Source: Linnemannia hyalina
Taxonomy: Eukaryota; Mortierellomycota; Mortierellomycetes; Mortierellales; Mortierellaceae
Direction of reading: 5' to 3'
Assembly: GCA_019671135.1 (NCBI GenBank)
Contig: JAHRHY010000004.1
Span: 310,001-374,000, forward strand
DNA length: 64,000 nucleotides
The notes under the pieces were generated by a model, which had not been told where the DNA came from, searched no databases, and worked only from the letters and a program-made list of their open reading frames with translations. Of this stretch, positions 34,899-59,755 are shown piece after piece. The first letter of the stretch is position 1, and every line of letters starts with the position of its first letter. The translations under genes were made by a program, and so were the position numbers.

Positions 34899-34924
34899 GG
34901 GGATCTAGCTCAAATGGTAGAGCG
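34899..34924 (+). repeat. 5' fragment of tRNA-Ala gene (left copy of LINE target duplication)
   Basis: The 26 bases are identical to bases 1-26 of the complete tRNA-Ala gene at 42112. They include the acceptor 5' strand, the D arm and the internal A box (TAGCTCAAATGG). They abut the 5' end of LINE copy 1. With the intact gene at the other end they form a target-site duplication of about 26 bp, or up to 28 if the preceding TC, also shared, is counted. Confidence 0.9.
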
Positions 34925-35038
34925 AGCAACTCTTTCTTCCCCTTTGCACAAGTTTTATATATTTCGCACCCCGCCCCAGACGGCCCCCCTTCACCTTTCT
35001 ACTACCCCTCTTTTCTCTTTTTTATCCCCCACCTACCC

Positions 35039-36928
35039 ATGTCGGTCAATCACGACATGGCCCTGGCGGCAGAAACAGTTCCGCCAGGTACCGACCCGAA
35101 TCCAGAAACTGGAACCGGATCGGCATCTGCAGCGCCCAGGTTGGCGATGGATGGATCTGGGACTCTTCCACCCATCCACCAAAAGTCGAATTCAACCCCC
35201 GACACCTCGAACCCACCACAACAGCAACAGCATCAACAACAGCAACAGCAACAACGACAACTACAACAACAACAGCAACAACCGGTTGTGTTTCGCCCAC
35301 CCCTGGAGTCAACAGCAACATGGGCGAAAAAGGCTGCAGCGGGCAAGTATCGCCCAGTAGCAGACACGCTCCCCGCGACCGTGTTCAGGGACGACTATGT
35401 CCTGGCCTACACCCTTCCCGGCAAGAAGGACACGCCCCAGGGCATCACATACACCCAGGTGATGAATGCCATCGCAGACCAAGTCAGAGGCGTGACGGAG
35501 CTGCGATTCGACCAAGTCCATAAATATATGGCAGCGATTTTCGAGGATAAGGCTGAGTTTGACTTTGCCCTTAACATCCCCCTGGAGATCACAACCACCT
35601 TCTGGATTCAGCCATCCAAGACGGTGTACACCTCGGGAGTGGAGGAGACGATCTTCGCCAACAACATCGCCTCCACCAAAAATCTGGAACAGATCCAGAC
35701 CGAACTGACGGCTATCTTCGGTAACCATGGGACCGTTGACAACATCAGCTTTGGGTACATTCGACACCCAACACACACAATCAAGGACGGTAACATATCC
35801 TTTCGACTCACGTTCCATGAGAACATCCCGTCCAACCCACAGCTGCCCAGGATCGCCAACTTTCTCCGCTGGAACACGTACTTCTTCTGGAGAAACGCCC
35901 CGGCCTTCTGCGTGGGATGCGGCATTACTGGACACGACTCTAGAAGCTGCAGCAAGGCAACAGCAAGCCTCGCCCTGAGCAACACACCCCTGCTGACTAA
36001 AACCATCATGTCGTACCGCTTCATGGAGGGAACGCCTACAGTCAACCAACTCGGTAGTAGTAGCAGAGGCAACAACAGCAACAGACAACAACCCAACAAA
36101 AGCAACAACAACAACAACAGCAAGAGCAACAGCAACAGCAACAGCAACAACAACAACAAGGAGCAGGGATCAAAGAGAATCTCGGCGCCGGACCAGGATG
36201 GATTTCAGATCCGTCATGCGCCAAAACCCACCATCAAGGACCTGGGGCCCTCCGGCCAGGACCCTCAGGACCACAAGAGACCTAGGTCCCTGGATGGCGC
36301 CCCCAAGAAGAAGAAGCCAAGGAAGAAGAAGACAAAGACCGCTGGACAGGCCACCACTCCTGCACCGCAGGCTGCTGGGTTGAATGGAAGCAAGGTCCCC
36401 GTGACCAATGCATCCGTACCCCAACAGAGGCCTCCTGTCCAAGCTGAAGGGTTGAATGGGACGAAGCCCGCTCTGAGCTTCAATCCCGTACCCCATCAGC
36501 AGGTCGCGCCCGCAAGCAACAGAGAACAACAGGCTGCACCAATGCAAGTTGTGGACCCATCTACACCCCAGGCTCAAACCCAGGGGTGGTTTGGTGTCGC
36601 GTCCACACATGCAGAGGCCTTTGTCCTTAATGCTCAAGGCACTTCTGGCCCCCCAGCTACTTCTAGTGATGGTAGCAGCAGCAGCAGCTCCGACAGCAGC
36701 AGCAGCACGCCAGCATCACCCCATCAGAAGGCTAGCGTACCACCCTCAGGTGTTGAATGCGACGCCCATGATACTACGAACAAACAACAGCACAACCACT
36801 TACAGACCGATGACGATGAGGACGACGACATGGGCGATAGTCTCGATCGTCTCTGGACCGCGGCAGAAAGAGAAGAAGCCCAAAGAGAACTAGAACAGAA
36901 TGGAGGTGGTGGAGATATGGATCAATAA
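35039..36928 (+). CDS. LINE copy 1 ORF1: nucleic-acid-binding protein with CCHC zinc knuckle
   Basis: 629 residues from the ATG at 35039. Residues of about 60-85 are Gln-rich. The middle (about 100-290) is a folded region resembling ORF1 RNA-binding domains of fungal LINEs. It ends in a zinc knuckle CVGCGITGHDSRSC (C-x2-C-x4-H-x4-C) at about 290-303. An Asn/Ser-rich linker, a Lys-rich patch (KKKKPRKKKTK) and a Ser-rich acidic C-terminus follow. By family knowledge, ORF1 products coat the element RNA and assist reverse transcription. The frame is fully open in this copy, whereas the copy 2 frame is broken by an LTR element. Confidence 0.9.
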   Translation: MSVNHDMALAAETVPPGTDPNPETGTGSASAAPRLAMDGSGTLPPIHQKSNSTPDTSNPPQQQQHQQQQQQQRQLQQQQQQPVVFRPPLESTATWAKKAAAGKYRPVADTLPATVFRDDYVLAYTLPGKKDTPQGITYTQVMNAIADQVRGVTELRFDQVHKYMAAIFEDKAEFDFALNIPLEITTTFWIQPSKTVYTSGVEETIFANNIASTKNLEQIQTELTAIFGNHGTVDNISFGYIRHPTHTIKDGNISFRLTFHENIPSNPQLPRIANFLRWNTYFFWRNAPAFCVGCGITGHDSRSCSKATASLALSNTPLLTKTIMSYRFMEGTPTVNQLGSSSRGNNSNRQQPNKSNNNNNSKSNSNSNSNNNNKEQGSKRISAPDQDGFQIRHAPKPTIKDLGPSGQDPQDHKRPRSLDGAPKKKKPRKKKTKTAGQATTPAPQAAGLNGSKVPVTNASVPQQRPPVQAEGLNGTKPALSFNPVPHQQVAPASNREQQAAPMQVVDPSTPQAQTQGWFGVASTHAEAFVLNAQGTSGPPATSSDGSSSSSSDSSSSTPASPHQKASVPPSGVECDAHDTTNKQQHNHLQTDDDEDDDMGDSLDRLWTAAEREEAQRELEQNGGGGDMDQ

Positions 36929-37014
36929 AAAGAAGTTTACCCTTTTCTTTATCATCCGTTTTTTCTGTCTATCTTTATTTAGATCTTTGTTTTTCATTGA
37001 TATATTTTTTTCTA

Positions 37015-40000
37015 ATGACCAGTCTATCATTTGCATCATTTAATTGCAATCGTGTTGTGGATACGAGAAAACGGCAGAACTTGTTCCGCTGGCTCAAAAC
37101 ACAACCGTTTGACATTATTGCGCTACAAGAGTGTAACCCTAAAGACAACCAGATTCCCGAATGGAGGAGAGAATGGGCTCGAGAGAGCTATTTTTCCCAG
37201 CATACGGCCATTCTGATCAAATCAAAACACATCAAGATGGATGCAGACAAGTGCCACACGCTGGAGAACGGTCGTATCGTCTACTTTGACTTTTTAGTAG
37301 ACGGGGTAGAATACCGCTTTGCAAGTGTGTACGCCCCCTCTGACCACAACCAAAGAAGAGCATTTCTCCTTCGATTCCCAGTCGATGTACTCCAACATCA
37401 ACGACTGGTTATTGGAGGTGACTTCAACACATACAAAGACATACAGAACGATCGCTTGCCCGCCCTGCAGGCGGGGCAACGCAACCGCTCCCACTGGCAC
37501 CACCTTGAGAATATTCTCACTCGTCTCGACTTGAGAGATACTATGCCACCAGTGGAAGAGGGAGGCCCTACAAAAGCCGGTCGGTTCACCTGTCGAACCA
37601 AACACAGAAAAATAGGGGCAGACAAAAGTGAGATTGTGCAAACACGCATTGATTACATTTTTGTCTCAACCCCAACCTTATTTCCAATTGCCTCAGATGC
37701 AAAAGTCACAGTGTGCACAGGTATACAGAGCGACCATGCGGTCATCTCTTGTCAACTGTCATCCACCGAGACCATTGCAGACGACGATCGCAAGCGTGCG
37801 ATCGATGTCCGCCACCTTAGCGGCCCCTTCATGTGCAGAGGATATAAAAAGGCATATAAAAAATATCCAAAGTCCAAGGAACGGAGTGTTGACTTCCATA
37901 ACTGGCATATCTCTTCATAGTGGGCAACAGAACACAGAATAAAATAGCAATAGACAGCACAAGAATTTTTAAAATGTAATCTCTCCCCTGTATTTCACGA
38001 CAAAGATACAGTTGGGAATACAAGTGCTTTAGATGATCACATACAAGAACTACTCTGTCGAATCTTGCAGTGAGGGTTACAGGTTAATAGTAGATGAACA
38101 CATTCAAGAGTTTGGTGTGCGAAAAATAAGAAGACTTTGTTGTTTGGAGAATAGGTTGGTGTTTAGTAGGATAGTTAAACAAAAAATGTTACAATGGTTG
38201 TCTTATATGCTTGGTATCATATATACATTCTCCTCTAATGGACGCGGTGGATATCGTCAAGATCTGCAGAGATGTAACAAACACCATATGATAATTTGGA
38301 CTTGAAAGGCCTCCTAAAGAATCCAGAGTACATTACTCTTATCCGACAATTGTGGGATGATCTCATGTCCTCACGCATTTCCATCCCAGAGGAAAAAGCG
38401 TTCGAGTTCTGGGATAGAGCAAAGGAAAGGATTCTGGAGGTGTCGTCCGAATTTGGAAAAAAGGAGCGAAAAAAACAAATCCAAAAGAAACACACCATTG
38501 AACGAAAAATGAAACAGACAAACGAGCAATTGATTGCAGACCCCTCTGACCAGGACGCAGCAGACACTTATGCCCGCCTCACGGCGGAGGCTATTGATCT
38601 CGAACAACAGTCTCTAGAGCGTCTCGCTATCTTGGCCAGGGTAAAGTGGATAGAAGAAGGAGAGATCCCCTCTCCTTACTTTACACGGGTCTTGCAAGGA
38701 TCAAGAGCGAAAAAATTAATTCCACACTTAAAGAAACCAGACGGCACTTTTACCTCCACAACCGAGGAGAGAGAAGAAGTAGTCAGGGACTTTTGGAAGA
38801 CCATATACACATCACAAGGCTCAGACGCGATGGCTAGATCAGCTCTCCTCCGGGATCTTCCTCAGGTCACAGCCCAGCATGTCGCCATTCTGGACAGTGA
38901 CTTGAGCCCGGTCGAGATAGAAAAAGCAATTGATATGAGTGCAAACCGCAAAGCGCCAGGTGAGGACGGTATACCTTTTGAATTCTACAAGACATTCAAG
39001 GACATGCTATCCGGCCTGCTGACACAAGTATACAACGAGGCAACGAAAGAGGATTTTGACCTGCCCCCGTCGACCAAAAAGTCGGCCGTCGCTCTTTTTT
39101 TTAAAAAAGGAGAACGATCGTTGTGCAAAAATTATCGCCCTATATCCCTTTCTGGGTGCGACTACAAAATTTTTACAAAAGCACTGACAGAACGAGTCAA
39201 CAAGGTCGCCACCTACCTTCTCCAGCCCTGGCAAACAGGTTTTGTCAAGGGCAGGCAGGGTCATGACAACGTACTTAATATGCATCTTTTGATGCAGCAT
39301 GTGCAGAAACAAATCACAGACGAACAGTTGGCACAACATCGCATTCTCCAATTTTTGGATCTGAATGACGCGATGGAGAGACACCCACGCCCCGACCTCC
39401 CTGCTGATGCCCTTCTTAGTCTCGACCAAGAAAAGGCATATGACAGAGTAGAATGGAAGTATCTTCATGAAGCGCTCAAAGCCTTTGGCTTTGGAGACCG
39501 CTTCAGGACGTGGATTACTCGATGCTATACTAATCCGTCGAGCAGAATCATTGTCAATGGACGCATGACCCAGCCTTTTCAAATTGAACGAGGACTGAGA
39601 CAAGGCGATCCACTAGCACCACTACTATTCAACTTTGTTCTTGAACCCTTTCTTAGGTACTACAGCCAGAGAGCTCGTGGTACCCTGCTCCCGAACGGTG
39701 ACGCCTCCAAAGTGAACGCTTTTGCAGATGACACCACCCTGTCCATCTCCAGAGGGGATGAGGAAGTAGTGATGGGGGCCTTGGCTCTACATGAACTTGC
39801 ATCAGGAGCCAAGGTAAACAAGGACAAGACAGCACTCATACCACTACAACCTTGGGCCCAACACTATTTCAATTTTGATCACCTCACAAATTGGGAAAGA
39901 TATGGAGCACCATTCACACATCTAGGTGTAGAACTGTCCGTTAATGGATTTAACCTGGAAGTGATCGAAAAGAGACTTATTAATGACCTGAAGGGATCGA

Positions 40001-41343
40001 CCGCAGCCTGGCGGCTGCGCGGTCTCACCATTCAGGGCAGAGTCACTGTCTTGAACACATATCTGTTATCCAAACTATGGCACTGTTCACCGTTCTACCC
40101 CTTTACAAACAATTTTTACGACCAAATAGAAAATATCCTAAGGGACGTGCTGTGGCATGGCAGAAAAGTCCGTATCTCGCTGGATACATTTTTCAAGCCA
40201 AAAAAGGACGGAGGATGGGGTCTTATACACCCTCGCTCTCAAGTCCTTGCCCTCAAGGCAAAGTGGATTGCTCGTTGGAAGACGGAACGGCCAGGAGTAA
40301 AATGGCAGCACACCTTTGAGACTGTTGCCCAGTACACCCGCCCCCTTATTCAACAAGACACACCTATCACACACTTTGCGGCACTACCACCAACAAAGAT
40401 GCAACAAAACCCAACACCCCAAGCCATCAAGTCCAGAAAAGCCGACACCCTCACCCACCACATCCTCATGTCATGGACAAAGGTCAAGGCGTTACTCAAG
40501 GACGGAACCACTACAGACTCGGATCCAAGGGAAGCCATTCTTTTTGGTAAACACAAGTCACCCCTCAAAGAATTTTCTGTCCGCAAAGCACGAAGCACAA
40601 TCGTCAGCGGACTTGAGCTCCCCCAGCCCATCACCATTGCCGACAAGCTCGCTAACCCGGGCCAAGCTTCTTTCCCATGGGACTGGACGGCTGCGCAGTG
40701 GAAGTTGATCTGGGACCGAGTACACAACACGAACCTACGTCGCAAGGAGCACGACCTTCTATACAAGCTGGCCTACAACAGGGTGACCACCAACAATATC
40801 CGCAAGCACTACAAGGAAGCGGATACGGACGGTACATGTAGACGGTGCGATACAGGAGCGAGTGAAGACAACCGTCATGCCTTTCACGACTGTCCAGAGT
40901 TGGCGACACACTGGGACAGCTTGCATGACCTCATCAAGACTATTTACCCTGACCTCAACGACTTGTCTCGCACCGCCCAGGACAGGATTTTTTGTTGGCC
41001 TGAACGAGACAACATGAATGACTACCCTCTTGTATACCACCTGCAAACAGCAGCACTCTGGTCGATATATGTTACCTTTTCCAAGCTGGGAGCAGGAGAG
41101 CAACTCGAGCCAGGCGCGCTACAGTCGATTTTTCTCCAGAATTGCCGTACCAGAGGCATGGAGGAGTGGATTCGAGCGGAGCAGCAGGACAAGAAGAACG
41201 CAACAAGGCCGATCCGAGAAGAGGAGGCACCGATGGACCCGCACGCGGGCAAGAACGCCTTTTATGAGATGTGGCACCACACACCACATATCAAGGTGAC
41301 CAAGAAGGGACCTCAGTTCGGAGACGCATTCCAACCACCATAA
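37015..41343 (+). pseudogene. LINE copy 1 ORF2 (endonuclease-reverse transcriptase), split by a MITE
   Basis: The first part (37015-37819) encodes about 268 residues of APE-like endonuclease: FNCNRV, ALQECNP, GGDFNTY and the final SDHAV are visible. The frame then runs into the MITE and stops at 37920. The second part resumes at about 38315 with KNPEYITL and continues to 41343. It includes NYRPISL, the RT active site AFADD and the zinc-binding CRRC...H....C near the C-terminus. The uninterrupted copy 2 shows that both halves belong to one 1276-codon frame. Unless the MITE is removed from the RNA, this copy cannot make full ORF2. Confidence 0.92.
37820..38314 (+). mobile_element. 495-bp MITE-like element, copy 1 (inside LINE ORF2)
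   Basis: The sequence between GCGGCCCC and GGCCTCC is absent from the otherwise collinear ORF2 of LINE copy 2, so it is an insertion. Flanks read TTA on the left and TAA on the right, consistent with a 3-bp duplication with one change. The ends are imperfect inverted repeats (GGCCCCTTCATGTGCA against GGCCTTTCAAGTCCA). The same unit occurs at 43556, 46579 and 62785. A 3-bp duplication suggests PIF/Harbinger-like mobilisation, but no transposase was seen. Confidence 0.85.
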
Positions 41344-42111
41344 CATGAGCAGGAGGAGAACGGGCAGCCAGCAGGATTAATTAGTATAGATTTCCTTTTT
41401 TTTGTTTTTTTTTTTTTTTTTTTTTCTTTCTCTTTCTTTCTTTCTCATTTCTCTGTATCTCTACGTCAAGCGTCTATATACCCTCCCTTTCGCCTTTCGC
41501 TTGACCTTTTCCCTTTTTTTTTTTTTTTTTTTTTTTTTTTATTTTTTTATTCTTTCTCTTTCTCTTTTTCTATCTCTAATCTCTTTTTCACTATTTCTAT
41601 TATCCTTTTCCCCTCCTCTCCTCCAAACCCGCAAACACAAACCCACAGAAACACCAAACACACACACAAGCCTCAACGTCACTACCCTCGAGCCTGAAAC
41701 GCTCATGCTCACCTCCGTATCAGATCACAGACACAGAGGACATGGATCTCACCCGTTTAAGCAGCGGAAACACTCTGAACAAGCAGTCAACGGCTTTTTT
41801 TTGGTTCACACAAGACCAACAGGCACCGTACCAAGGCGGCGATGCCTGCCCAACAGCTCTAACACCCCCCCGAGCCGAGATCCACCCCCTCCCCCATCCT
41901 TACCTTCGCCCTGTACTATAACTTCCAACTTGGATTCCCCCTCCCTCTTTTTCCCACTGTCCCCTCCCTACATTTTTTTACACCTTAAATCCTAGAGTAG
42001 CATTTTTTATCAGCCCTTTTTTGGTGGCGTCGCAAAAATTAGGTAGCGGGAACCAGACGGAGGAGTTCTGAATGACCCGAAATTAAACATACCCGAGGTG
42101 TAACAACCGTC
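41344..42111 (+). other. LINE copy 1 3' UTR with long T tracts
   Basis: About 770 bp after the ORF2 stop. T runs of about 20-28 lie at 41397-41425 and 41514-41550, followed by a C-rich part. The corresponding runs in copies 2 and 3 differ in length. A frame in the last part (41703-41995) is conserved in copy 2 but shifted in copy 3, so I treat it as untranslated. The final 20 bases before the tRNA are identical in all three copies. Confidence 0.7.
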
Positions 42112-42184
42112 GGGGATCTAGCTCAAATGGTAGAGCGCTCGCTTAGCATGCGAGAGGCACTGGGATCGATGCCCAGGTTCTCCA
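42112..42184 (+). tRNA. tRNA-Ala (anticodon AGC)
   Basis: 73 bases including the discriminator A. The D arm is GCTC..GAGC, the anticodon stem-loop CTCGC-TTAGCAT-GCGAG gives anticodon AGC, and the T arm is CTGGG-ATCGATG-CCCAG. The acceptor stem (GGGGATC/GTTCTCC) has one U-U mismatch and one G-U pair. A box TAGCTCAAATGG and B box GGGATCGATGCCC are intact. It begins exactly where LINE copy 1 ends, so the natural 5' flank has been replaced by LINE 3' UTR. Whether it is still expressed depends on how much upstream sequence Pol III needs. Confidence 0.93.
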
Positions 42185-42293
42185 ACTTCAATTCTTTTTG
42201 ATTCGTTTTGGTCAGCTAGGTTGCTGCTGCCGGATGAAGATATTCTGACTGTAGTGTCAGATTACTTATTCTGACATTACAGTCAGATTATCC

Positions 42294-45049: not shown

Positions 45050-45069
45050 TGCGGGGATGCATCCCCGCA
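45050..45069. repeat. 20-bp perfect palindrome
   Basis: A self-complementary stretch centred on ATGCAT with GC-rich arms (GCGGGG/CCCCGC). It is the only long GC-rich palindrome in this A/T-rich part of the element. Confidence 0.9.
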
Positions 45070-45094
45070 ACAAATAAAAAAAAATAGGCCATTA

Positions 45095-48659: not shown

Positions 48660-48732
48660 TGGAGAACCTGGGCATCGATCCCAGTGCCTCTCGCATGCTA
48701 AGCGAGCGCTCTACCATTTGAGCTAGATCCCC
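48660..48732 (-). tRNA. tRNA-Ala (anticodon AGC), second copy
   Basis: Identical to the tRNA at 42112 and on the opposite strand. Its first base abuts the 3' end of LINE copy 2. The 47 bp after it are also identical to those after the first tRNA, so the two genes are duplicates rather than independent tRNA-Ala genes. Confidence 0.93.
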
Positions 48733-49301
48733 GACGGTTGTTACACCTCGGGTATGTTTAATTTCGGGTCATTCAGAACTCCTCCGTCTGGTTCCCGCTA
48801 CCTAATTTTTGCGACGCCACCAAAAAAGGGCTGATAAAAAATGCTACTCTAGGATTTAAGGTGTAAAAAAATGTAGGGAGGGGACAGTGGGAAAAAGAGG
48901 GAGGGGGAATCCAAGTTGGAAGTTATAGTACAGGGCGAAGGTAAGGATGGGGGAGGGGGTGGATCTCGGCTCGGGGGGGTGTTAGAGCTGTTGGGCAGGC
49001 ATCGCCGCCTTGGTACGGTGCCTGTTGGTCTTGTGTGAACCAAAAAAAAGCCGTTGACTGCTTGTTCAGAGTGTTTCCGCTGCTTAAACGGGTGAGATCC
49101 ATGTCCTCTGTGTCTGTGATCTGATACGGAGGTGAGCATGAGCGTTTCAGGCTCGAGGGTAGTGACGTTGAGGCTTGTGTGTGTGTTTGGTGTTTCTGTG
49201 GGTTTGTGTTTGCGGGTTTGGAGGAGAGGAGGGGAAAAGGATAATAGAAATAGTGAAAAAGAGATTAGAGATAGAAAAAGAGAAAGAGAAAGAATAAAAA
49301 A

Positions 49302-49338
<37 letters not shown>

Positions 49339-49507
49339 AAAAGGTCAAGCGAAAGGCGAAAGGGAGGGTATATAGACGCTTGACGTAGAGATACAGAGAA
49401 ATGAGAAAGAAAGAAAGAGAAAGAAAAAAAAAAAAAAAAAAAAAAACAAAAAAAAGGAAATCTATACTAATTAATCCTGCTGGCTGCCCGTTCTCCTCCT
49501 GCTCATG

Positions 49508-52500
49508 TTATGGTGGTTGGAATGCGTCTCCGAACTGAGGTCCCTTCTTGGTCACCTTGATATGTGGTGTGTGGTGCCACATCTCATAAAAGGCGTTCTT
49601 GCCCGCGTGCGGGTCCATCGGTGCCTCCTCTTCTCGGATCGGCCTTGTTGCGTTCTTCTTGTCCTGCTGCTCCGCTCGAATCCACTCCTCCATGCCTCTG
49701 GTACGGCAATTCTGGAGAAAAATCGACTGTAGCGCGCCTGGCTCGAGTTGCTCTCCTGCTCCCAGCTTGGAAAAGGTAACATATATCGACCAGAGTGCTG
49801 CTGTTTGCAGGTGGTATACAAGAGGGTAGTCATTCATGTTGTCTCGTTCAGGCCAACAAAAAATCCTGTCCTGGGCGGTGCGAGACAAGTCGTTGAGGTC
49901 AGGGTAAATAGTCTTGATGAGGTCATGCAAGCTGTCCCAGTGTGTCGCCAACTCTGGACAGTCGTGAAAGGCATGACGGTTGTCTTCACTCGCTCCTGTA
50001 TCGCACCGTCTACATGTACCGTCCGTATCCGCTTCCTTGTAGTGCTTGCGGATATTGTTGGTGGTCACCCTGTTATAGGCCAGCTTGTATAGAAGGTCGT
50101 GTTCCTTGCGACGTAGGTTCGTGTTGTGTACTCGGTCCCAGATCAACTTCCACTGCGCAGCCGTCCAGTCCCATGGGAAAGAGGCTTGGCCCGGGTTAGC
50201 GAGCTTGTCGGCAATGGTGATGGGCTGGGGGAGCTCAAGTCCGCTGACGATTGTGCTTCGTGCTTTGCGGACAGAAAATTCTTTGAGGGGTGACTTGTGT
50301 TTACCAAAAAGAATGGCTTCCCTTGGATCCGAGTCTGTAGTGGTTCCGTCCTTGAGTAACGCCTTGACCTTTGTCCATGACATGAGGATGTGGTGGGTGA
50401 GGGTGTCGGCTTTTCTGGACTTGATGGCTTGGGGTGTTGGGTTTTGTTGCATCTTTGTTGGTGGTAGTGCCGCAAAGTGTGTGATAGGTGTGTCTTGTTG
50501 AATAAGGGGGCGGGTGTACTGGGCAACAGTCTCAAAGGTGTGCTGCCATTTTACTCCTGGCCGTTCCGTCTTCCAACGAGCAATCCACTTTGCCTTGAGG
50601 GCAAGGACTTGAGAGCGAGGGTGGATAAGACCCCATCCTCCGTCCTTTTTTGGCTTGAAAAATGTATCCAGCGAGATACGGACTTTTCTGCCATGCCACA
50701 GCACGTCCCTTAGGATATTTTCTATTTGGTCGTAAAAATTGTTTGTAAAGGGGTAGAACGGTGAACAGTGCCATAGTTTGGATAACAGATATGTGTTCAA
50801 GACAGTGACTCTGCCCTGAATGGTGAGACCGCGCAGCCGCCAGGCTGCGGTCGATCCCTTCAGGTCATTAATAAGTCTCTTTTCGATCACTTCCAGGTTA
50901 AATCCATTAACGGACAGTTCTACACCTAGATGTGTGAATGGTGCTCCATATCTTTCCCAATTTGTGAGGTGATCAAAATTGAAATAGTGTTGGGCCCAAG
51001 GTTGTAGTGGTATGAGTGCTGTCTTGTCCTTGTTTACCTTGGCTCCTGATGCAAGTTCATGTAGAGCCAAGGCCCCCATCACTACTTCCTCATCCCCTCT
51101 GGAGATGGACAGGGTGGTGTCATCTGCAAAAGCGTTCACTTTGGAGGCGTCACCGTTCGGGAGCAGGGTACCACGAGCTCTCTGGCTGTAGTACCTAAGA
51201 AAGGGTTCAAGAACAAAGTTGAATAGTAGTGGTGCTAGTGGATCGCCTTGTCTCAGTCCTCGTTCAATTTGAAAAGGCTGGGTCATGCGTCCATTGACAA
51301 TGATTCTGCTCGACGGATTAGTATAGCATCGAGTAATCCACGTCCTGAAGCGGTCTCCAAAGCCAAAGGCTTTGAGCGCTTCATGAAGATACTTCCATTC
51401 TACTCTGTCATATGCCTTTTCTTGGTCGAGACTAAGAAGGGCATCAGCAGGGAGGTCGGGGCGTGGGTGTCTCTCCATCGCGTCATTCAGATCCAAAAAT
51501 TGGAGAATGCGATGTTGTGCCAACTGTTCGTCTGTGATTTGTTTCTGCACATGCTGCATCAAAAGATGCATATTAAGTACGTTGTCATGACCCTGCCTGC
51601 CCTTGACAAAACCTGTTTGCCAGGGCTGGAGAAGGTAGGTGGCGACCTTGTTGACTCGTTCTGTCAGTGCTTTTGTAAAAATTTTGTAGTCGCACCCAGA
51701 AAGGGATATAGGGCGATAATTTTTGCACAACGATCGTTCTCCTTTTTTAAAAAAAAGGGCGACGGCCGACTTTTTGGTCGACGGGGGCAGGTCAAAATCC
51801 TCTTTCGTTGCCTCGTTGTATACTTGTGTCAGCAGGCCGGATAGCATGTCCTTGAATGTCTTGTAGAATTCAAAAGGTATACCGTCCTCACCTGGCGCTT
51901 TGCGGTTTGCACTCATATCAATTGCTTTTTCTATCTCGACCGGGCTCAAGTCACTGTCCAGAATGGCGACATGCTGGGCTGTGACCTGAGGAAGATCCCG
52001 GAGGAGAGCTGATCTAGCCATCGCGTCTGAGCCTTGTGATGTGTATATGGTCTTCCAAAAGTCCCTGACTACTTCTTCTCTCTCCTCGGTTGTGGAGGTA
52101 AAAGTGCCGTCTGGTTTCTTTAAGTGTGGAATTAATTTTTTCGCTCTTGATCCTTGCAAGACCCGTGTAAAGTAAGGAGAGGGGATCTCTCCTTCTTCTA
52201 TCCACTTTACCCTGGCCAAGATAGCGAGACGCTCTAGAGACTGTTGTTCGAGATCAATAGCCTCCGCCGTGAGGCGGGCATAAGTGTCTGCTGCGTCCTG
52301 GTCAGAGGGGTCTGCAATCAATTGCTCGTTTGTCTGTTTCATTTTTCGTTCAATGGTGTGTTTCTTTTGGATTTGTTTTTTTCGCTCCTTTTTTCCAAAT
52401 TCGGACGACACCTCCAGAATCCTTTCCTTTGCTCTATCCCAGAACTCGAACGCTTTTTCCTCTGGGATGGAAATGCGTGAGGACATGAGATCATCCCACA

Positions 52501-53338
52501 ATTGTCGGATAAGAGTAATGTACTCTGGATTCTTAAGGTGGCGGACATCGATCGCACGCTTGCGATCGTCGTCTGCAATGGTCTCGGTGGATGACAGTTG
52601 ACAAGAGACGACCGCATGGTCGCTCTGTATACCTGTGCACACTGTGACTTTTGCATCTGAGGCAATTGGAAATAAGGTTGGGGTTGAGACAAAAATGTAA
52701 TCAATGCGTGTTTGCACAATCTCACTTTTGTCTGCCCCTATTTTTCTGTGTTTGGTTCGACAGGTGAACCGACCGGCTTTTGTAGGGCCTCCCTCTTCCA
52801 CTGGTGGCATAGTATCTCTCAAGTCGAGACGAGTGAGAATATTCTCAAGGTGGTGCCAGTGGGAGCGGTTGCGTTGCCCCGCCTGCAGGGCGGGCAAGCG
52901 ATCGTTCTGTATGTCTTTGTATGTGTTGAAGTCACCTCCAATAACCAGTCGTTGATGTTGGAGTACATCGACTGGGAATCGAAGGAGAAATGCTCTTCTT
53001 TGGTTGTGGTCAGAGGGGGCGTACACACTTGCAAAGCGGTATTCTACCCCGTCTACTAAAAAGTCAAAGTAGACGATACGACCGTTCTCCAGCGTGTGGC
53101 ACTTGTCTGCATCCATCTTGATGTGTTTTGATTTGATCAGAATGGCCGTATGCTGGGAAAAATAGCTCTCTCGAGCCCATTCTCTCCTCCATTCGGGAAT
53201 CTGGTTGTCTTTAGGGTTACACTCTTGTAGCGCAATAATGTCAAACGGTTGTGTTTTGAGCCAGCGGAACAAGTTCTGCCGTTTTCTCGTATCCACAACA
53301 CGATTGCAATTAAATGATGCAAATGATAGACTGGTCAT
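49508..53338 (-). CDS. LINE copy 2 ORF2: intact endonuclease-reverse transcriptase
   Basis: 1276 residues from ATG at 53338. Residues 1-255 are an APE-type endonuclease (FNCNRV, LQECNP, GGDFNTY, SDHAVVSC). The reverse transcriptase spans about 450-800, with NYRPISL near 540, LRQGDPLAPLLFN, and the catalytic AFADD near 737. A conserved linker with WHGRKVRISLD and WGLIHPRS follows. A C-terminal zinc motif CRRC-x9-H-x4-C lies near 1109-1127. By family knowledge the endonuclease nicks the target and the RT copies element RNA onto the exposed 3' end (target-primed reverse transcription). This is the only unbroken ORF2 in the window and could be active if expressed, but its own ORF1 is disrupted. 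Confidence 0.95.
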   Translation of the reverse strand: MTSLSFASFNCNRVVDTRKRQNLFRWLKTQPFDIIALQECNPKDNQIPEWRREWARESYFSQHTAILIKSKHIKMDADKCHTLENGRIVYFDFLVDGVEYRFASVYAPSDHNQRRAFLLRFPVDVLQHQRLVIGGDFNTYKDIQNDRLPALQAGQRNRSHWHHLENILTRLDLRDTMPPVEEGGPTKAGRFTCRTKHRKIGADKSEIVQTRIDYIFVSTPTLFPIASDAKVTVCTGIQSDHAVVSCQLSSTETIADDDRKRAIDVRHLKNPEYITLIRQLWDDLMSSRISIPEEKAFEFWDRAKERILEVSSEFGKKERKKQIQKKHTIERKMKQTNEQLIADPSDQDAADTYARLTAEAIDLEQQSLERLAILARVKWIEEGEIPSPYFTRVLQGSRAKKLIPHLKKPDGTFTSTTEEREEVVRDFWKTIYTSQGSDAMARSALLRDLPQVTAQHVAILDSDLSPVEIEKAIDMSANRKAPGEDGIPFEFYKTFKDMLSGLLTQVYNEATKEDFDLPPSTKKSAVALFFKKGERSLCKNYRPISLSGCDYKIFTKALTERVNKVATYLLQPWQTGFVKGRQGHDNVLNMHLLMQHVQKQITDEQLAQHRILQFLDLNDAMERHPRPDLPADALLSLDQEKAYDRVEWKYLHEALKAFGFGDRFRTWITRCYTNPSSRIIVNGRMTQPFQIERGLRQGDPLAPLLFNFVLEPFLRYYSQRARGTLLPNGDASKVNAFADDTTLSISRGDEEVVMGALALHELASGAKVNKDKTALIPLQPWAQHYFNFDHLTNWERYGAPFTHLGVELSVNGFNLEVIEKRLINDLKGSTAAWRLRGLTIQGRVTVLNTYLLSKLWHCSPFYPFTNNFYDQIENILRDVLWHGRKVRISLDTFFKPKKDGGWGLIHPRSQVLALKAKWIARWKTERPGVKWQHTFETVAQYTRPLIQQDTPITHFAALPPTKMQQNPTPQAIKSRKADTLTHHILMSWTKVKALLKDGTTTDSDPREAILFGKHKSPLKEFSVRKARSTIVSGLELPQPITIADKLANPGQASFPWDWTAAQWKLIWDRVHNTNLRRKEHDLLYKLAYNRVTTNNIRKHYKEADTDGTCRRCDTGASEDNRHAFHDCPELATHWDSLHDLIKTIYPDLNDLSRTAQDRIFCWPERDNMNDYPLVYHLQTAALWSIYVTFSKLGAGEQLEPGALQSIFLQNCRTRGMEEWIRAEQQDKKNATRPIREEEAPMDPHAGKNAFYEMWHHTPHIKVTKKGPQFGDAFQPP

Positions 53339-55261
53339 TAGAAAAAAAATATATCAATGAAAAACAAAGATCTAAATAAAGATAGACAGAAAAAACGGAT
53401 GATAAAGAAAAGGGTAAACTTCTTTTTATTGATCCATATCTCCACCACCTCCATTCTGTTCTAGTTCTCTTTGGGCTTCTTCTCTTTCTGCCGCGGTCCA
53501 GAGACGATCGAGACTATCGCCCATGTCGTCGTCCTCATCGTCATCGGTCTGTAAGTGGTTGTGCTGTTGTTTGTTCGTAGTATCATGGGCGTCGCATTCA
53601 ACACCTGAGGGTGGTACGCTAGCCTTCTGATGGGGTGATGCTGGCGTGCTGCTGCTGCTGCCGGAGCTGCTGCTGCTGCTACCATCACTAGAAGTAGCTG
53701 GGGGGCCAGAAGTGCCTTGAGCATTAAAGACAAAGGCCTCTGCATGTGTGGACGCGACACCAAACCACCCCTGGGTTTGAGCCTGGGGTGTAGATGGGTC
53801 CACAACTTGCATTGGTGCAGCCTGTTGTTCTCTGTTGCTTGCGGGCGCGACCTGCTGATGGGGTACAGGATTGAAGCTCAGAGCGGGCTTCGTCCCATTC
53901 AACCCTTCAGCTTGGACAGGAGGCCTCTGTTGGGGTACGGATGCATTGGTCACGGGGACCTTGCTTCCATTCAACCCAGCAGCCTGCGGTGCAGGAGTGG
54001 TGGCCTGTCCAGCGGTCTTTGTCTTCTTCTTCCTTGGCTTCTTCTTCTTGGGGGCGCCATCCAGGGACCTAGGTCTCTTGTGGTCCTGAGGGTCCTGGCC
54101 GGAGGGCCCCAGGTCCTTGATGGTGGGTTTTGGCGCATGACGGATCTGAAATCCATCCTGGTCCGGCGCCGAGATTCTCTTTGATCCCTGCTCCTTGTTG
54201 TTGTTGTTGCTGTTGCTGTTGCTGTTGCTCTTGCTGTTGTTGTTGTTGTTGCTTTTGTTGGGTTGTTGTCTGTTGCTGTTGTTGCCTCTGCTACTACTAC
54301 CGAGTTGGTTGACTGTAGGCGTTCCCTCCATGAAGCGGTACGACATGATGGTTTTAGTCAGCAGGGGTGTGTTGCTCAGGGCGAGGCTTGCTGTTGCCTT
54401 GCTGCAGCTTCTAGAGTCGTGTCCAGTAATGCCGCATCCCACGCAGAAGGCCGGGGCGTTTCTCCAGAAGAAGTACGTGTTCCAGCGGAGAAAGTTGGCG
54501 ATCCTGGGCAGCTGTGGGTTGGACGGGATGTTCTCATGGAACGTGAGTCGAAAGGATATGTTACCGTCCTTGATTGTGTGTGTTGGGTGTCGAATGTACC
54601 CAAAGCTGATGTTGTCAACGGTCCCATGGTTACCGAAGATAGCCGTCAGTTCGGTCTGGATCTGTTCCAGATTTTTGGTGGAGGCGATGTTGTTGGCGAA
54701 GATCGTCTCCTCCACTCCCGAGGTGTACACCGTCTTGGATGGCTGAATCCAGAAGGTGGTTGTGATCTCCAGGGGGATGTTAAGGGCAAAGTCAAACTCA
54801 GCCTTATCCTCGAAAATCGCTGCCATATATTTATGGACTTGGTCGAATCGCAGCTCCGTCACGCCTCTGACTTGGTCTGCGATGGCATTCATCACCTGGG
54901 TGTATGTGATGCCCTGGGGCGTGTCCTTCTTGCCGGGAAGGGTGTAGGCCAGGACATAGTCGTCCCTGAACACGGTCGCGGGGAGCGTGTCTGCTACTGG
55001 GCGATACTTGCCCGCTGCAGCCTTTTTCGCCCATGTTGCTGTTGACTCCAGGGGTGGGCGAAACACAACCGGTTGTTGCTGTTGTTGTTGTAGTTGTCGT
55101 TGTTGCTGTTGTTGATGCTGTTGCTGTTGTGGTGGGTTCGAGGTGTCGGGGGTTGAATTCGACTTTTGGTGGATGGGTGGAAGAGTCCCAGATCCATCCA
55201 TCGCCAACCTGGGCGCTGCAGATGCCGATCCGGTTCCAGTTTCTGGATTCGGGTCGGTACC

Positions 55262-55468
55262 TGCAACATATTAGGTTTACTATTGCTCTCTAGTTAGTCA
55301 TTCCTTGTCACCCTCTGTCACCTCTGACTTTGTATGACACTACACCTAGAAACCTAGTTGGCGACTTTGTATATATATTTAGTTGTATCATAGTAATAAC
55401 ATCAATCATCACTGCTTCAACTCTCGTCCCCGTTCTATACTTCTCTGTCCCAGTCTTCGCCTGTTGCA
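55262..55468 (+). repeat. Left LTR
   Basis: 207 bp, TG...CA ends with 7-bp inverted repeats. A TATATATA run lies at about 55370. It is identical by eye to the right LTR, implying a very recent insertion. Confidence 0.93.
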
Positions 55469-55480
55469 TGGTAGCAAAGG
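55469..55480 (+). other. Primer binding site (initiator-Met tRNA type)
   Basis: TGGTAGCAAAGG begins with zero spacing after the LTR. It fits the complement of the usual eukaryotic tRNA-iMet 3' end (CCTCTGCTACCA) except at one base. Confidence 0.75.
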
Positions 55481-55839
55481 TTACACCGATCCATCACCGC
55501 CCTCCCATTTTATCTTTATTTTTATTTTTATTTTTATTTTACCTCCCCCTCTCCACATTTTTTTTGTTGAGGGGAAAGGGAGTCTACACCTACATCCATC
55601 GGTGGAGTCCTCGCCCTTATCGCCCTTCGTTGCCGACTAAGAGCTGTTTCTCTAGAGTTAAGAAAGGTCCCTTGATCTTACTCATTAGCGCATTAGCGAC
55701 CAGTATCTTAGCCTCCCAGCCTTGTCTCCCTCTTCCTCCATCCCTCGCCCTCGCCCCTTTCTTTATCGTCTCCCAACATGCCCCTCTTGGCTCTCGACAT
55801 TCTTCATCGTCCTTAGTCTTTCCAGCTATTAGTCTCCTC

Positions 55840-56165
55840 TGCACTCAGTCTCCTCTGTTCCCAGTTTCCCTGTTCTCAGTTTCCCCTATCCCCAGTTTCC
55901 CCTGTTCTCAGTTTCCACTGTTCCCAGTTTCCCTGTTCTCAGTTTCCCCTGTTCCCAGTTTCCCTGTTCTCAGTTTCCCCTGTTCCCAGTTTCCCTGTTC
56001 TCAGTTTCCCCTGTTCCCAGTTTCCCTGTTCTCAGTTTCCCCTGTCCCCAGTTTCCCCTGTTCTCAGTTTCCCCTGTCCCCAGTTTCCCCTGTTCTCAGT
56101 TTCCCCTGTTCCCAGTTTCCCCTGTTCCCAGTTTCCCAGTCACAGCTTCCTCTGTTCTCAGTTTC
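55840..56165 (+). repeat. Minisatellite of 16-17 bp units inside the LTR element
   Basis: About 18-20 copies of variants of CCTGTTC(T/C)CAGTTTCC, followed by a more degenerate extension to about 56280. All units are C/T-rich on the element sense strand. The array makes an accidental Phe-Pro-Val-Ser-rich frame. Confidence 0.9.
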
Positions 56166-56960
56166 CCTTATTCCATGCTCCCTTGTGCTCAGCCGTCCTC
56201 GTGCTCAACCGTCCCTTGTTTCAGTCTTCCTTGTACTCAGCCTTCCTCGTACTGAGCCTTCCATGCTCCCAGTCTTCTTAGCAATCAGTCTCCTGTTCTA
56301 TATCCTGTCTTATATTCCAAGCCTCGTTTCGTCCGCCTCCTTGACATCGTTCGTGATATCTTCTCCACGGATGCGTCATTCCCAATCCCCTCGTTTGTCG
56401 GGTTGCCAACAGTTGATGCGCCCAGTCCAGCCCTCTCATCTGTTCGATTGCCTTCAGTCAACATATCTTATTCCATTTCCTTGTCCATGGTATCGCTGCC
56501 CATGGATATGTCAATACCTTCGTCCGTCACACTCCTTCCGTCCATTCAGCCAATCTGCCCTACGATGCCAACCGACCCCTGCCATCCCCTATGTCATCTC
56601 GACCACAAGAAGACAATTGATTCTGGCTCAAGTCCTCCATCCTTCGTCGAAATCACCAAAACCATCGTCAAGGATAGTGCGTCCATTGAATCCGGAACCG
56701 TCAACCCCAGTCCACTTCGATCGTATGTCCATGCTGCCCGCCGTCCGTAACAATCCCGATCCAAAAGTCATCCACCATGTGGTTGTCTGTCGTTGGTGCA
56801 GAGAGATGAACATGTTAAGTTGAGTGTTAATCTCTCGTTCCTAAAACAGCCACAAATTCGACGTCACGCGCAATGTCCCCTATGTGCACACAAACCGCGT
56901 TCCCTCTATGTGCACACATCCCTTACTCCCTCTATATACACGCGTGCGGGAAGACAGCCC

Positions 56961-57162
56961 GCTCACCAAAATTGTTCACATGCACATCCCTTTTCTTCGT
57001 TCATGCAAACTCTCTTTTCCTTCCTGTCGTTCTTAACCAATCCCGTTACACTTTCATTACAGCCGGCTCACCAAAATTGTTCACATGCACATCCCTTTTC
57101 TCCATTCATGCAAACTCTCTTTTCTTTCCTATCGTTCTTAACCAATCCCGTTACACTTTCCT
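56961..57162 (+). repeat. 105-bp tandem duplication inside the LTR element
   Basis: A unit beginning GCTCACCAAAATTGTTCACA occurs at 56961 and again at 57066 with few differences. Confidence 0.88.
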
Positions 57163-57522
57163 TGATCACGCCATTCTCTCTTCCACCCCATGCAACAACA
57201 CTCTCTGTTCCCTCCTCCCTCCTTCAGCAAGCACGCCATTCTCCCCCATGCACAAACTCCTTTTGTCCTCACAGTCAACCACACCATCATCCTTTCACCT
57301 CATGCACACACCCTTCCAGTTTCCTTCCAGTTCCATTCCAACATGACCTCAGTTCATCGACAGTTCGCCGTTGCTCGACATTCAAAAGCAACAAGCTGCC
57401 CATTCTCACTTCTCTTCTCTTTGTTCCCTACACCCTTCCATTCCCCTGCCTCCATTCCCCTGCCTCCATCTCATTCGCCTACCTTCGTTCACACCGCTAT
57501 TCACACATTTGCTTCCCCATTC

Positions 57523-57554
<32 letters not shown>

Positions 57555-57598
57555 AACATATACACAACCTTTCCTCTCTCACAACACCGACCACCACC

Positions 57599-58225
57599 AT
57601 GTCCGCCAAGCGAGCACACTTCAGTTCCTCCGTCAAGACCATTCCGGATGCCCAGCCCAACCGTCGTACAGCCTCACTCCAACACCAAAAGTCCTTTAAT
57701 GGTGAGGACGACCCTGAGGCAGCATCCATTCGAAGCACTTTCCCCGCCGCACAGAAGCCGTCCGAGGAGCAAGAAACGACGTCCGATAACGACGAAGCCA
57801 ACACCACCTTCGTCACTCAGCAAACCATCAACCTTGATCCCGAAGACGACGAAAAACCAATCCTTGAAAGACCACAAGTCCATGCGGCTTCTCTTTCTAC
57901 CCAAGAAAACCTCGGACCATGTCAGCCAACCCAAGTTGGCAGCTTTCTCGCACAGCTGGAGATTGCGTGGCAAGAGACGCGCCAGGAGATGTATAAAACC
58001 GCTCCGTTGTGTAGCGACACATCCCTATCCCCGAACCTCCTGGAATGGTACCGAAGACACTATGTGGACCTCCGAGAACAAGAAAAAAGCCTTCGAGGTG
58101 ACATTGGTCGCCTAACCCCTGTCCCTCCGATGCCAATGGACCCTCACCTCAAGTTTTACCAGGAAGCCCTCCACGCCTACAGAGAAACTCTTCAAGAGTA
58201 CTGGTCGAAGAGGCCCCACCCCTAG
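57599..58225 (+). CDS. Only plausible protein of the LTR element (208 residues, function unknown)
   Basis: The ATG at 57599 sits in an ACCACCACC context right after a 28-base A tract and is followed by 208 codons with normal composition, unlike the pyrimidine-rich surroundings. The N-terminal half is acidic and Ser/Thr/Gln-rich. The C-terminal half (about 115-208) is predicted helical: FLAQLEIAWQETRQEMYKT, LLEWYRRHYVDLREQEKSLR and LKFYQEALHAYRETLQEYW. No zinc knuckle or protease motif is present. It could be a gag-like structural protein or a captured host gene. It ends about 300 bp before the polypurine tract. Confidence 0.55.
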   Translation: MSAKRAHFSSSVKTIPDAQPNRRTASLQHQKSFNGEDDPEAASIRSTFPAAQKPSEEQETTSDNDEANTTFVTQQTINLDPEDDEKPILERPQVHAASLSTQENLGPCQPTQVGSFLAQLEIAWQETRQEMYKTAPLCSDTSLSPNLLEWYRRHYVDLREQEKSLRGDIGRLTPVPPMPMDPHLKFYQEALHAYRETLQEYWSKRPHP

Positions 58226-58543
58226 GTCTCCTTTAGAAGGAGGAGTGTCAGAGTCCCACTCTGTCCTCTTTCCCTTGCCCCTTCTCTCCTCTGTTTTCCT
58301 TCTCTCTGCCTCTTCTATTTATCTCTTTTTCCCTGTCTCTTTTCTCTCTCCTCGCACCTCTCTCATTTCTCCTTCTCCACCACGTTCCTTGTGTATGTCG
58401 CGTATCCCCTGTCCCCACGCCCTTACGTGTTCCGCGTCTTTCCCATCTCCTGTCTTCGGTCACTCCCTTCATTTATTTTTTTTAACCAAGTCCAAGCCGA
58501 TCATGGCCTGAAACTTGATGAATTTTTTTTTAAGAGGGGAAGG
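58226..58543 (+). other. LTR-element 3' internal region with polypurine tract
   Basis: About 320 bp of C/T-rich sequence without a gene. It ends in an A/T stretch and the polypurine tract AAGAGGGGAAGG (58532-58543) that would prime plus-strand synthesis. Confidence 0.75.
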
Positions 58544-58750
58544 TGCAACATATTAGGTTTACTATTGCTCTCTAGTTAGTCATTCCTTGTCACCCTCTGT
58601 CACCTCTGACTTTGTATGACACTACACCTAGAAACCTAGTTGGCGACTTTGTATATATATTTAGTTGTATCATAGTAATAACATCAATCATCACTGCTTC
58701 AACTCTCGTCCCCGTTCTATACTTCTCTGTCCCAGTCTTCGCCTGTTGCA
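58544..58750 (+). repeat. Right LTR
   Basis: 207 bp, matching the left LTR base for base as far as I can read; followed by the GTACC target duplication. Confidence 0.93.
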
Positions 58751-58914
58751 GTACCTGGCGGAACTGTTTCTGCCGCCAGGGCCATGTCGTGATTGACCGA
58801 CATGGGTAGGTGGGGGATAAAAAAGAGAAAAGAGGGGTAGTAGAAAGGGGAAGGGGGGCCGTCTGGGGCGGGGTGCGAAATATATAAAACTTGTGCAAAG
58901 GGGAAGAAAGAGTT

Positions 58915-58939
58915 GCTCTACCATTTGAGCTAGATCCCC
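58915..58939 (-). repeat. tRNA-Ala 5' fragment between LINE copies 3 and 2
   Basis: 25 bases matching tRNA-Ala positions 1-25 on the minus strand. It lies between the 3' end of copy 3 (58940) and the 5' end of copy 2. It is the left copy of the duplication made by copy 2, and equally the first part of the tRNA that once followed copy 3. Confidence 0.9.
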
Positions 58940-59522
58940 GACGGTTGTTACACCTCGGGTATGTTTAATTTCGGGTCATTCAGAACTCCTCCGTCTGGTT
59001 CCCGCTACCTAATTTTTGCGACGCCACCAAAAAAGGGCTGATAAAAAAATGCTACTCTAGGATTTAAGGTGTAAAAAAATGTAGGGAGGGGACAGTAGGA
59101 AAAAGAGGGAGGGAGGATCCAAGTTGGAAGTTATAGTACAGGGCGAAGGTAAGGATGGGGGAGGGGGTGGATCTCGGCTCGGGGGGGTGTTAGAGCTGTT
59201 GGGCAGGCATCGCCGCCTTGGTACGGTGCCTGTTGGTCTTGTGTGGGCCAAAACAGCCGTTGACTGCTTGTTCAAAGTGTTTCCGCTGCTTAAACGGGTG
59301 AGATCCATGTCCTCTGTGTCTGTGATCTGATACGGAGGTGAGCATGAGCGTGTCAGGCTCGAGGGTAATGACGTTGAGGCTTGTGTGTGTGTTTGGTGTT
59401 TGTGTGGGTTTGTGTTTGTGGGTTTGGAGGAGAGGAGGGGAAAAGGATAATAGAAATAGTGAAAAAGGATAATAGAAATAGTGAAAAAGCGATTAGAGAT
59501 AAAAAAAGGTGAAAGAGAAAAA

Positions 59523-59561
<39 letters not shown>

Positions 59562-59655
59562 AAAAGGTCAAGCGAAAGGCGAAAGGGAGGGTATATAGAC
59601 GCTTGACGTAGAGATACAGAGAAATGAATAAGAAAGAGAGAGAAAAGAAAAAAAG

Positions 59656-59706
<51 letters not shown>

Positions 59707-59755
59707 AATCTATACTAATTAATCCTGCTGGCTGCCCGTTCTCCTCCTGCTCATG

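What the first reader, a model, noticed from the sequence alone, without database searches (positions are those of the whole stretch)
34899..42184. LINE that inserts inside a tRNA-Ala gene and rebuilds the complete tRNA gene downstream
Seen: copy 1 is flanked on its 5' side by tRNA-Ala bases 1-26 and on its 3' side by a complete tRNA-Ala starting at base 1. Copy 2 shows the same arrangement. The 3' end of copy 3 meets tRNA base 1 in the same way; its 5' end is outside the window. The target duplication therefore spans the start of the tRNA to a point just after the D arm. Established: Dictyostelium TRE elements and some LTR elements target positions next to tRNA genes. Inference: cutting inside the gene while duplicating its 5' part makes the insertion harmless to the host tRNA. 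I know of no described fungal LINE with this behaviour.
Basis: partly seen in the sequence, partly recalled or inferred. Interest (0 to 1): 0.92.

Follow-up and report, generated by a model that had tools for sequence, protein, structure and literature searches.

The report
LINE that rebuilds its tRNA target
In a fungus apparently related to Mortierella, a self-copying DNA element (a LINE) sits, in 11 of the 12 copies found, inside alanine tRNA genes at one exact point, and each of those sites still ends in a complete tRNA gene, so the insertions likely do the host little harm.

Summary
Observation confirmed and extended genome-wide. The LINE encodes an APE endonuclease and a reverse transcriptase; its best match in the PDB is human L1 ORF2p. 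Twelve 3' ends were found. Eleven of 12 meet base 1 of a tRNA-Ala(AGC) sequence: 7 run into a complete gene, 4 into bases 1-25 followed by another LINE. All 11 have tRNA bases 1-25 on the 5' side (one with a mismatch), joined exactly after base 25, including four copies truncated at four different points. Seven of 14 identical tRNA-Ala(AGC) genes are occupied; paralogous empty sites exist. Control: the corresponding 25 bases of tRNA-Lys/Arg occur 20 times, always in complete genes. The twelfth copy, in host sequence, carries tRNA bases 1-8 before a 16-bp target duplication beginning AGCTCA (tRNA bases 9-14). I infer that the LINE RNA reads through into the tRNA, the bottom strand is nicked at 8|9, and the RNA supplies bases 1-8. 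A relative (35% identity, same 100/100 clade), on a contaminant contig, lies 570 bp upstream of a complete tRNA-Lys; a third member has no tRNA nearby. My paper searches showed no LINE inserted inside tRNA genes. New variant of a known kind.

The parts
34899..34923 (+).
   Evidence: 100% match to tRNA bases 1-25; base 26 also matches, within an extra GAGC
34924..42111 (+). Copy A LINE body, ending CAACCGTC with no A-tail, directly before tRNA base 1
35039..36928 (+). Copy A ORF1 (629 aa); gag-like CCHC motif (recalled pattern) seen by eye
   Evidence: weak similarity around the motif between ORF1 of copy B and of L056; no Pfam hit
36997..41343 (+). Copy A ORF2 region (APE + RT), interrupted by a ~490-bp insert at about 37819-38311
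42112..42184 (+). Complete tRNA-Ala(AGC) directly downstream of copy A
   Evidence: ARAGORN; one of 14 identical genes
48660..48732 (-).
   Evidence: the first 47 bases after it match those after copy A's tRNA 47/47
48733..58914 (-). Copy B LINE body, split by an LTR-flanked insertion at 55262-58750 (207-bp terminal repeats, 100% identical)
49508..53338 (-). Copy B ORF2, open, 1276 aa: Exo_endo_phos (APE) + RVT_1
   Evidence: Pfam; best PDB chains human L1 ORF2p
58915..58939 (-). tRNA-Ala bases 1-25: 5' repeat of copy B and at the same time the sequence after the 3' end of copy C
58940..64000 (-).

Best explanation
This is an L1-like LINE that, in 11 of the 12 copies found, sits inside tRNA-Ala(AGC) genes at one fixed point, joined after tRNA base 25 on its 5' side and followed by tRNA base 1 on its 3' side, and it likely gets there by target-primed reverse transcription of an RNA that would read through into the tRNA. 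Shown: the fixed junctions, the complete tRNA gene at each of the seven occupied tRNA sites, serial insertion at one tRNA site, and one off-target copy that carries tRNA bases 1-8. Inferred: (1) the LINE RNA ends in tRNA sequence, at least to base 14; (2) the element's endonuclease nicks the bottom strand opposite 8|9; (3) the exposed primer anneals to AGCUCA (bases 9-14) of the RNA tail, and reverse transcription copies tRNA bases 8-1 and then the LINE; (4) the top strand is cut at 25|26, a 17-base stagger, which fixes the 5' junction even when the cDNA is truncated; (5) the result is bases 1-25, then the LINE, then a complete tRNA gene, so each insertion restores its own target and further copies can enter the same gene.
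For: Twelve LINE 3' ends (counts are lower bounds): 11 of 12 abut tRNA-Ala base 1; 7 run into a complete tRNA, 4 into bases 1-25 then another LINE. The tRNA 1-25 word (up to 2 mismatches) occurs 25 times: 14 complete genes plus 11 five-prime LINE junctions, none left over. All 11 junctions are at base 25; E, F, H and I are truncated at four different LINE positions and still join there, with 0-1 nt of shared bases. Control: the first 25 bases of tRNA-Lys(CTT)/Arg, with nearly the same D arm, occur 20 times, 20 of 20 at complete tRNA genes of the list, no orphan. Four other tRNA-Ala-like genes (81-83% identical) have no LINE end next to them. Empty paralogous sites: copy H versus C17:545759 (5' flank 116/129, 3' flank 99/110); copy K versus C1:1688548 (5' flank 131/134 only). 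Off-target copy on C15: TSD AGCTCACCCTCTGGTG, with GGGGATCT between LINE and TSD; 2 of 4 paralogs compared span the junction, and both lack LINE and GGGGATCT. The 16-bp TSD begins with tRNA bases 9-14 and is close to the 17 bp of bases 9-25. APE and RT domains. The relative L056 lies 570 bp upstream of a complete tRNA-Lys whose bases 8-15 and 18-26 equal those of tRNA-Ala; both LINEs fall in one 100/100 clade. That R1Bm needs downstream target sequence for accurate reverse transcription is stated in PMC7265360 (passages).
Against: Nick position and RNA-supplied bases rest on a single off-target copy; at tRNA sites a nick at base 1 with a true 25-bp duplication gives the same sequence. RNA annealing alone cannot explain the target choice, because tRNA-Lys/Arg genes also contain AGCTCA and are not hit, so the protein must read more of the site. 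L049, a relative in the same clade, has no tRNA in its 8.5 kb and no second copy of its 3' region was found. L056 is a single copy with its 5' end off the contig, so its exact ends are unknown. The LINE end scores poorly against native tRNA upstream flanks, so undisturbed expression of the rebuilt tRNA is not shown. Placement among named LINE clades was not possible.
Confidence: 0.65

Rival explanations
1. Same site-specific LINE, but the bottom strand is nicked exactly before tRNA base 1 and the whole 25-bp repeat is a true target duplication; the RNA ends at the LINE's own 3' end, for example after RNase P cuts the LINE-tRNA transcript.
For: The 3' boundary is exactly tRNA base 1 in 11 of 11 tRNA-site copies, where RNase P cuts (recalled).
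Against: The off-target copy carries tRNA bases 1-8 that its target did not have, so at least that RNA contained tRNA sequence. The tRNA beside L056 shares bases 8-15 and 18-26 with tRNA-Ala but only 1 of the first 7, which puts the common core at about 8-25.
Confidence: 0.27
2. Targeting by tethering to the Pol III machinery (TFIIIB/TFIIIC), as in Ty3 or TRE5, rather than by recognising the tRNA-Ala sequence.
For: The target is a Pol III gene; base 25 lies between the A box and the B box (box positions recalled).
Against: Only tRNA-Ala(AGC) is hit: 11 of 11 tRNA-site copies, no orphan 25-mer at 20 Lys/Arg genes. Junctions are fixed to the base, whereas the elements in the passages seen of PMC5911963 insert in windows outside the mature tRNA.
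Confidence: 0.06
3. One insertion multiplied with its tRNA flanks by segmental duplication or unequal crossing-over.
For: Copy A and the D-C-B array lie on inverted duplicate flanks (5' 141/148; first 47 bases of the 3' flank 47/47); A, C and D share an insert of the same length at the same ORF2 place. Part of the C33 cluster may have arisen this way.
Against: E, F, H and I have four different truncation points, and among the seven outer 5' flanks compared (A, D, G, H, I, J, K) only A and D matched. At least eight separate insertion events are needed.
Confidence: 0.01
4. LINE and tRNA form one fixed mobile unit, with the tRNA as internal cargo.
For: One off-target copy carries tRNA bases 1-8.
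Against: It carries no full tRNA. The complete tRNA after copy H has a 3' flank that matches an empty paralog, and seven identical tRNA-Ala genes have no LINE.
Confidence: 0.01

Closest known systems
Dictyostelid tRNA-targeted non-LTR elements: TRE5, TRE3, NLTR-A, NLTR-B
   Same: Non-LTR retrotransposons (the TREs with APE and RT) that use multicopy tRNA genes as safe sites in compact genomes (PMC5006619, PMC5911963; passages seen).
   Different: They insert in flanks (40-54 or 39-64 or 2-6 bp upstream, 40-150 bp downstream); this one is inside the gene at one base, in one isoacceptor, and a complete gene is left.
APE-type site-specific LINEs of RNA genes: Keno (U2 snRNA) and other Tx1- and R1-clade elements
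   Same: Sequence-specific insertion with an APE endonuclease (PMC4640811, passages); R1Bm needs downstream target sequence for accurate reverse transcription (PMC7265360, passages).
   Different: Target is a tRNA gene, and repeat plus downstream gene leave a whole tRNA.
Utopia (U2 snRNA)
   Same: Precise 3' boundary in a small RNA gene, occasional tandem insertion, 20-bp duplications in reptile families (PMC4640811, passages).
   Different: Restriction-like endonuclease; different target.
Dada DNA transposons in tRNA genes
   Same: Insert inside tRNA genes, including tRNA-Ala (PMC8869645, passages).
   Different: DNA transposon with a DDD/E transposase, 6-7 bp duplications; the paper speaks of disrupted tRNA genes.
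Human LINE-1 ORF2p
   Same: Best PDB match (best stretch 5-599; one entry 5-934).
   Different: No A-tail here; strict site specificity.

Membership tests
L1-group (APE-type) LINE | ORF2 with N-terminal APE endonuclease and RT | tested here: met
   Pfam PF03372 at 7-227 and RVT_1, best stretch 633-776; best PDB chains human L1 ORF2p, E 1.1e-45
L1-group (APE-type) LINE | 5'-truncated copies with target site duplications | tested here: met
   E, F, H, I truncated at four points; 16-bp TSD at the off-target site
L1-group (APE-type) LINE | 3' poly(A) or A-rich tail | tested here: not met
   12 of 12 copies end CAACCGTC then GGGGATCT
Tx1 clade | RT phylogeny grouping with named Tx1 elements | tested here: inconclusive
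   No named Tx1 reference at hand; a Xenopus protein of unknown clade falls outside the 9-row clade
Dictyostelid TRE/NLTR | Insertion in a window outside the mature tRNA sequence | tested here: not met
   11 of 11 tRNA-site copies inside, after base 25
Dada | DDD/E transposase and 6-7 bp TSD | tested here: not met
   APE and RT instead; 25-bp repeat
Site-specific LINE of multicopy RNA genes (works-like class) | Most copies at one base of one RNA gene family | tested here: met
   11 of 12 copies found
Site-specific LINE of multicopy RNA genes (works-like class) | Endonuclease cuts the target specifically | not testable with these tools
   needs in vitro cleavage

The most novel reading that the evidence does not exclude
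Probability: 0.35. Interest if true: 0.87.

Novelty: new variant of a known kind. Interest (0 to 1): 0.74.

Why it matters
The tRNA-targeting retroelements in the papers I saw insert beside the gene. This one joins inside it, between the A and B boxes (recalled positions), yet leaves a complete gene. A target that is restored with each insertion would explain how an element can live on only 14 gene copies, where site-specific LINEs of RNA genes commonly break the copy they enter (recalled). If the mechanism holds, it is a natural, base-precise insertion system of L1 type with a compact 25-bp target and a testable RNA-guided priming step, of use for thinking about retrotransposon-based gene insertion.

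Tried and rejected
Promoter mimicry: I asked whether the LINE's last 45 bases resemble the 5' flanks of native tRNA genes, which would keep the rebuilt tRNA expressed. I took 44 flanks (37 fetched, 7 unoccupied tRNA-Ala), dropped L057 and near-duplicates, and kept 40. The LINE end scored poorly with both backgrounds (rank 538 of 724 windows of its own 3' UTR, 68% of random window 45-mers as good or better; and rank 685 of 724, 91%). A CAA/AAC/CATC word in the last 12 bases is found in 26 of 40 native flanks against 30% of random words, and the LINE end has one too, but that is weak. Rejected.

3'-end homology with L056: local alignment of the last 80 bases was no better than shuffles (506 of 2000 reach it). 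RNA folding of the ends was unremarkable (z 0.22, -1.35 and -1.67).

Other LINEs in the genome as contrast: one search lists 22 further places at 26-37% identity; for 3 of the 22 I fetched about 3 kb on the 3' side (in the C7 copy about 1.9 kb of it beyond the ORF2 stop) and found no tRNA. The other 19 were not checked. The 39-41% relative L049 has no tRNA in 8.5 kb, no recognisable target repeat, and its 3' region found only itself; its target is unknown. This counts against a clade-wide claim.

More relatives with DNA context: viral contigs gave none; genome contigs gave one, L056; in the MAG that holds L056 the LINE 3' region plus tRNA found only itself and a weak match at other tRNA-Lys genes.

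Clade assignment to Tx1 or L1 proper: no named reference set; left open. The tree holds 23 of the 63 LINE proteins listed, plus four sequences from loci; it warns of three long branches and of uneven letter make-up in many rows.
Full report
What is in the window. The window is C33:310001-374000 of a 51.5-Mb assembly in 50 contigs. A gene in the window (13758-15137, rna14-like) is 85-88% identical to proteins named Mortierella polycephala and Podila, so the host is apparently a Mortierellaceae fungus. Copy B (copy 2) lies on the minus strand between a complete tRNA at 48660-48732 and bases 1-25 at 58915-58939. Copy C (copy 3) ends at those same 25 bases, so C and B are in tandem and share one intact tRNA. 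The two tRNA loci face each other and share flanks (outer 5' flank 141/148; first 47 bases after the tRNA 47/47): an inverted duplication, one arm with one LINE, the other with three (D, C, B).

What the element is. Copy B's ORF2 (1276 aa) is open and has an APE endonuclease and an RT domain; the best PDB matches are human L1 ORF2p. ORF1 has no Pfam hit; a CCHC knuckle is visible by eye and in the weak alignment with ORF1 of L056. Copies B, H and K have stop-free ORF2 matches over 1-1276, and A and E, on different contigs, are 100.0% identical over the last 1700 bases, gaps set aside: recent activity.

The genome-wide table. The last 262 bases of copy A occur 12 times (the tool calls its counts lower bounds). 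In 7 of 12 the 3' end runs into a complete tRNA-Ala(AGC): A, B, E, H, I, J, K. In 4 of 12 (C, D, F, G) it runs into bases 1-25 and then another LINE. In 1 of 12 (X, on C15) it runs into bases 1-14 and then host sequence. The tRNA search gave 18 matches: 14 identical tRNA-Ala(AGC) genes, 7 with a LINE directly upstream and 7 without, and 4 other tRNA-Ala-like genes (81-83%), none with a LINE end beside it. The word of bases 1-25, with up to 2 mismatches, occurs 25 times: the 14 genes and the 11 five-prime junctions of A-K, one of them (G) with a mismatch. The 5'-end search gave 7 hits; one (L015) is the second half of copy B, split by an insertion, and one (copy J) is partial.

The 5' junction. 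In 11 of 11 tRNA-site copies the tRNA stops at base 25, the last base of the D stem. B, C, D, J and K start with the same LINE base (J diverges after 18 bases); A has four extra bases (GAGC). E, F, H and I are truncated at four different points and still join at base 25 with 0-1 shared base. G has 198 bases of other sequence between the tRNA and a 533-base match to the LINE end. Variable cDNA ends joined to one fixed tRNA base point to a fixed top-strand cut at 25|26. In the C17 array three differently shortened copies (G, F, E) follow one another in front of one intact tRNA: serial insertion into the same gene, not tandem duplication.

Empty sites. Copy H and the unoccupied gene at C17:545759 share 5' flank (116/129) up to tRNA base 1 and 3' flank (99/110, starting 35 and 15 bases after the tRNA); copy K and C1:1688548 share 5' flank (131/134) but no 3' flank. 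These are paralogous, not orthologous, sites.

Control. The first 25 bases of tRNA-Lys(CTT)/Arg(TCT), with nearly the same D arm, occur 20 times with up to 2 mismatches, and 20 of 20 fall on complete tRNA genes of the RF00005 list (11 of the 20 were fetched and typed as Lys or Arg). Orphan 25-base tRNA pieces are therefore peculiar to tRNA-Ala(AGC) among the two words tested. Three of 22 places of more distant LINEs had no tRNA in about 3 kb fetched on the 3' side; 19 were not checked.

The off-target copy. On C15 a 399-column match (LINE 3' end plus tRNA bases) sits in host sequence that looks like a gene with paralogs. The site reads ACA-AGCTCACCCTCTGGTG before the LINE and GGGGATCT-AGCTCACCCTCTGGTG-CTTC after it. 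Of four paralogous places compared, two (C6, C12) cover the junction and read straight through AAGCTCACCCTCTGGTGCTTC, with no LINE and no GGGGATCT; the other two align only beyond it. GGGGATCT is tRNA bases 1-8 and must have come with the RNA; AGCTCA is tRNA bases 9-14 and is part of the 16-bp duplication. The simplest reading is that the RNA ran at least to base 14, and that a primer ending in TGAGCT annealed to it. Applied to the tRNA gene, the same nick (8|9) and the top cut at 25|26 give a 17-bp duplication, with bases 1-8 supplied by the RNA. This step is inference from one copy. R1Bm's need for downstream target sequence is the nearest precedent (stated in PMC7265360; passages seen).

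A relative at another tRNA. The one other LINE of this clade for which I could read an open ORF2 with its DNA context is L056, a 6660-bp contig in an Iodobacter MAG, almost certainly a eukaryotic contaminant. Its ORF2 (35% identity) stops at 5523 and a complete tRNA-Lys(CTT) begins at 6094 on the same strand. Its tRNA shares bases 8-15 and 18-26 with tRNA-Ala, but only 1 of the first 7 bases. Its 5' end is off the contig and no second copy was found in that MAG, so the exact 3' end cannot be proved. In the tree the two fall in one nine-row clade (100/100). A third member, L049, in this same genome, has no tRNA nearby.

What is not shown. Whether the rebuilt tRNAs are transcribed; the LINE end scores poorly as a native tRNA upstream region. 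Which bases the endonuclease reads. Whether the arrangement holds in other strains: no relatives of this genome are held.

Comparison with print. Seen as passages only: PMC5911963 and PMC5006619 (tRNA-targeted retroelements; the table rows shown put every listed non-LTR element outside the mature tRNA), PMC4640811, PMC5035012, PMC8869645, PMC5014426, PMC7265360. Eight searches of the paper library (listings with starts of abstracts) showed no LINE inserted inside tRNA genes; two of the eight returned no paper. Most subscription papers and Repbase are not covered, so an element known elsewhere is possible.

Verdict. A site-specific LINE inside tRNA-Ala genes that leaves a complete gene: about 0.97 certain. 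The read-through priming mechanism: about 0.65. A clade of LINEs devoted to different tRNAs: about 0.35.

Noticed in passing
window 55262-58750: LTR-flanked insertion in copy B, near the start of its ORF1; 207-bp terminal repeats 100% identical, so recent.
   Followed up: partly
window ~37819-38311, 43551-44051, 46574-47072; also in L012 and L049: A ~490-500-bp repeated element. A, C and D have an insert of the same length at the same ORF2 place, so copies with a broken ORF2 multiplied, by trans-mobilisation or by DNA duplication.
   Followed up: partly
window 42112-48732 with flanks: Inverted duplication of a tRNA-Ala locus, one arm with one LINE, the other with three.
   Followed up: partly
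L027/L046, C17 copy G: 198 bases of non-LINE sequence between tRNA 1-25 and a short LINE 3' end; possibly a template switch.
   Followed up: no
L056 (NZ_JANXSO010000066.1): Eukaryotic LINE contig binned in a bacterial (Iodobacter) MAG: apparent contamination.
   Followed up: partly
L049 and P0004: A second family of the same clade in this genome, 96% identical over 635 aa to P0004 from an unnamed contig; the copy seems 5'-truncated, target unknown.
   Followed up: partly
L096:1299-1453: Rfam MIR7504 match below the gathering score; probably a hairpin repeat.
   Followed up: no
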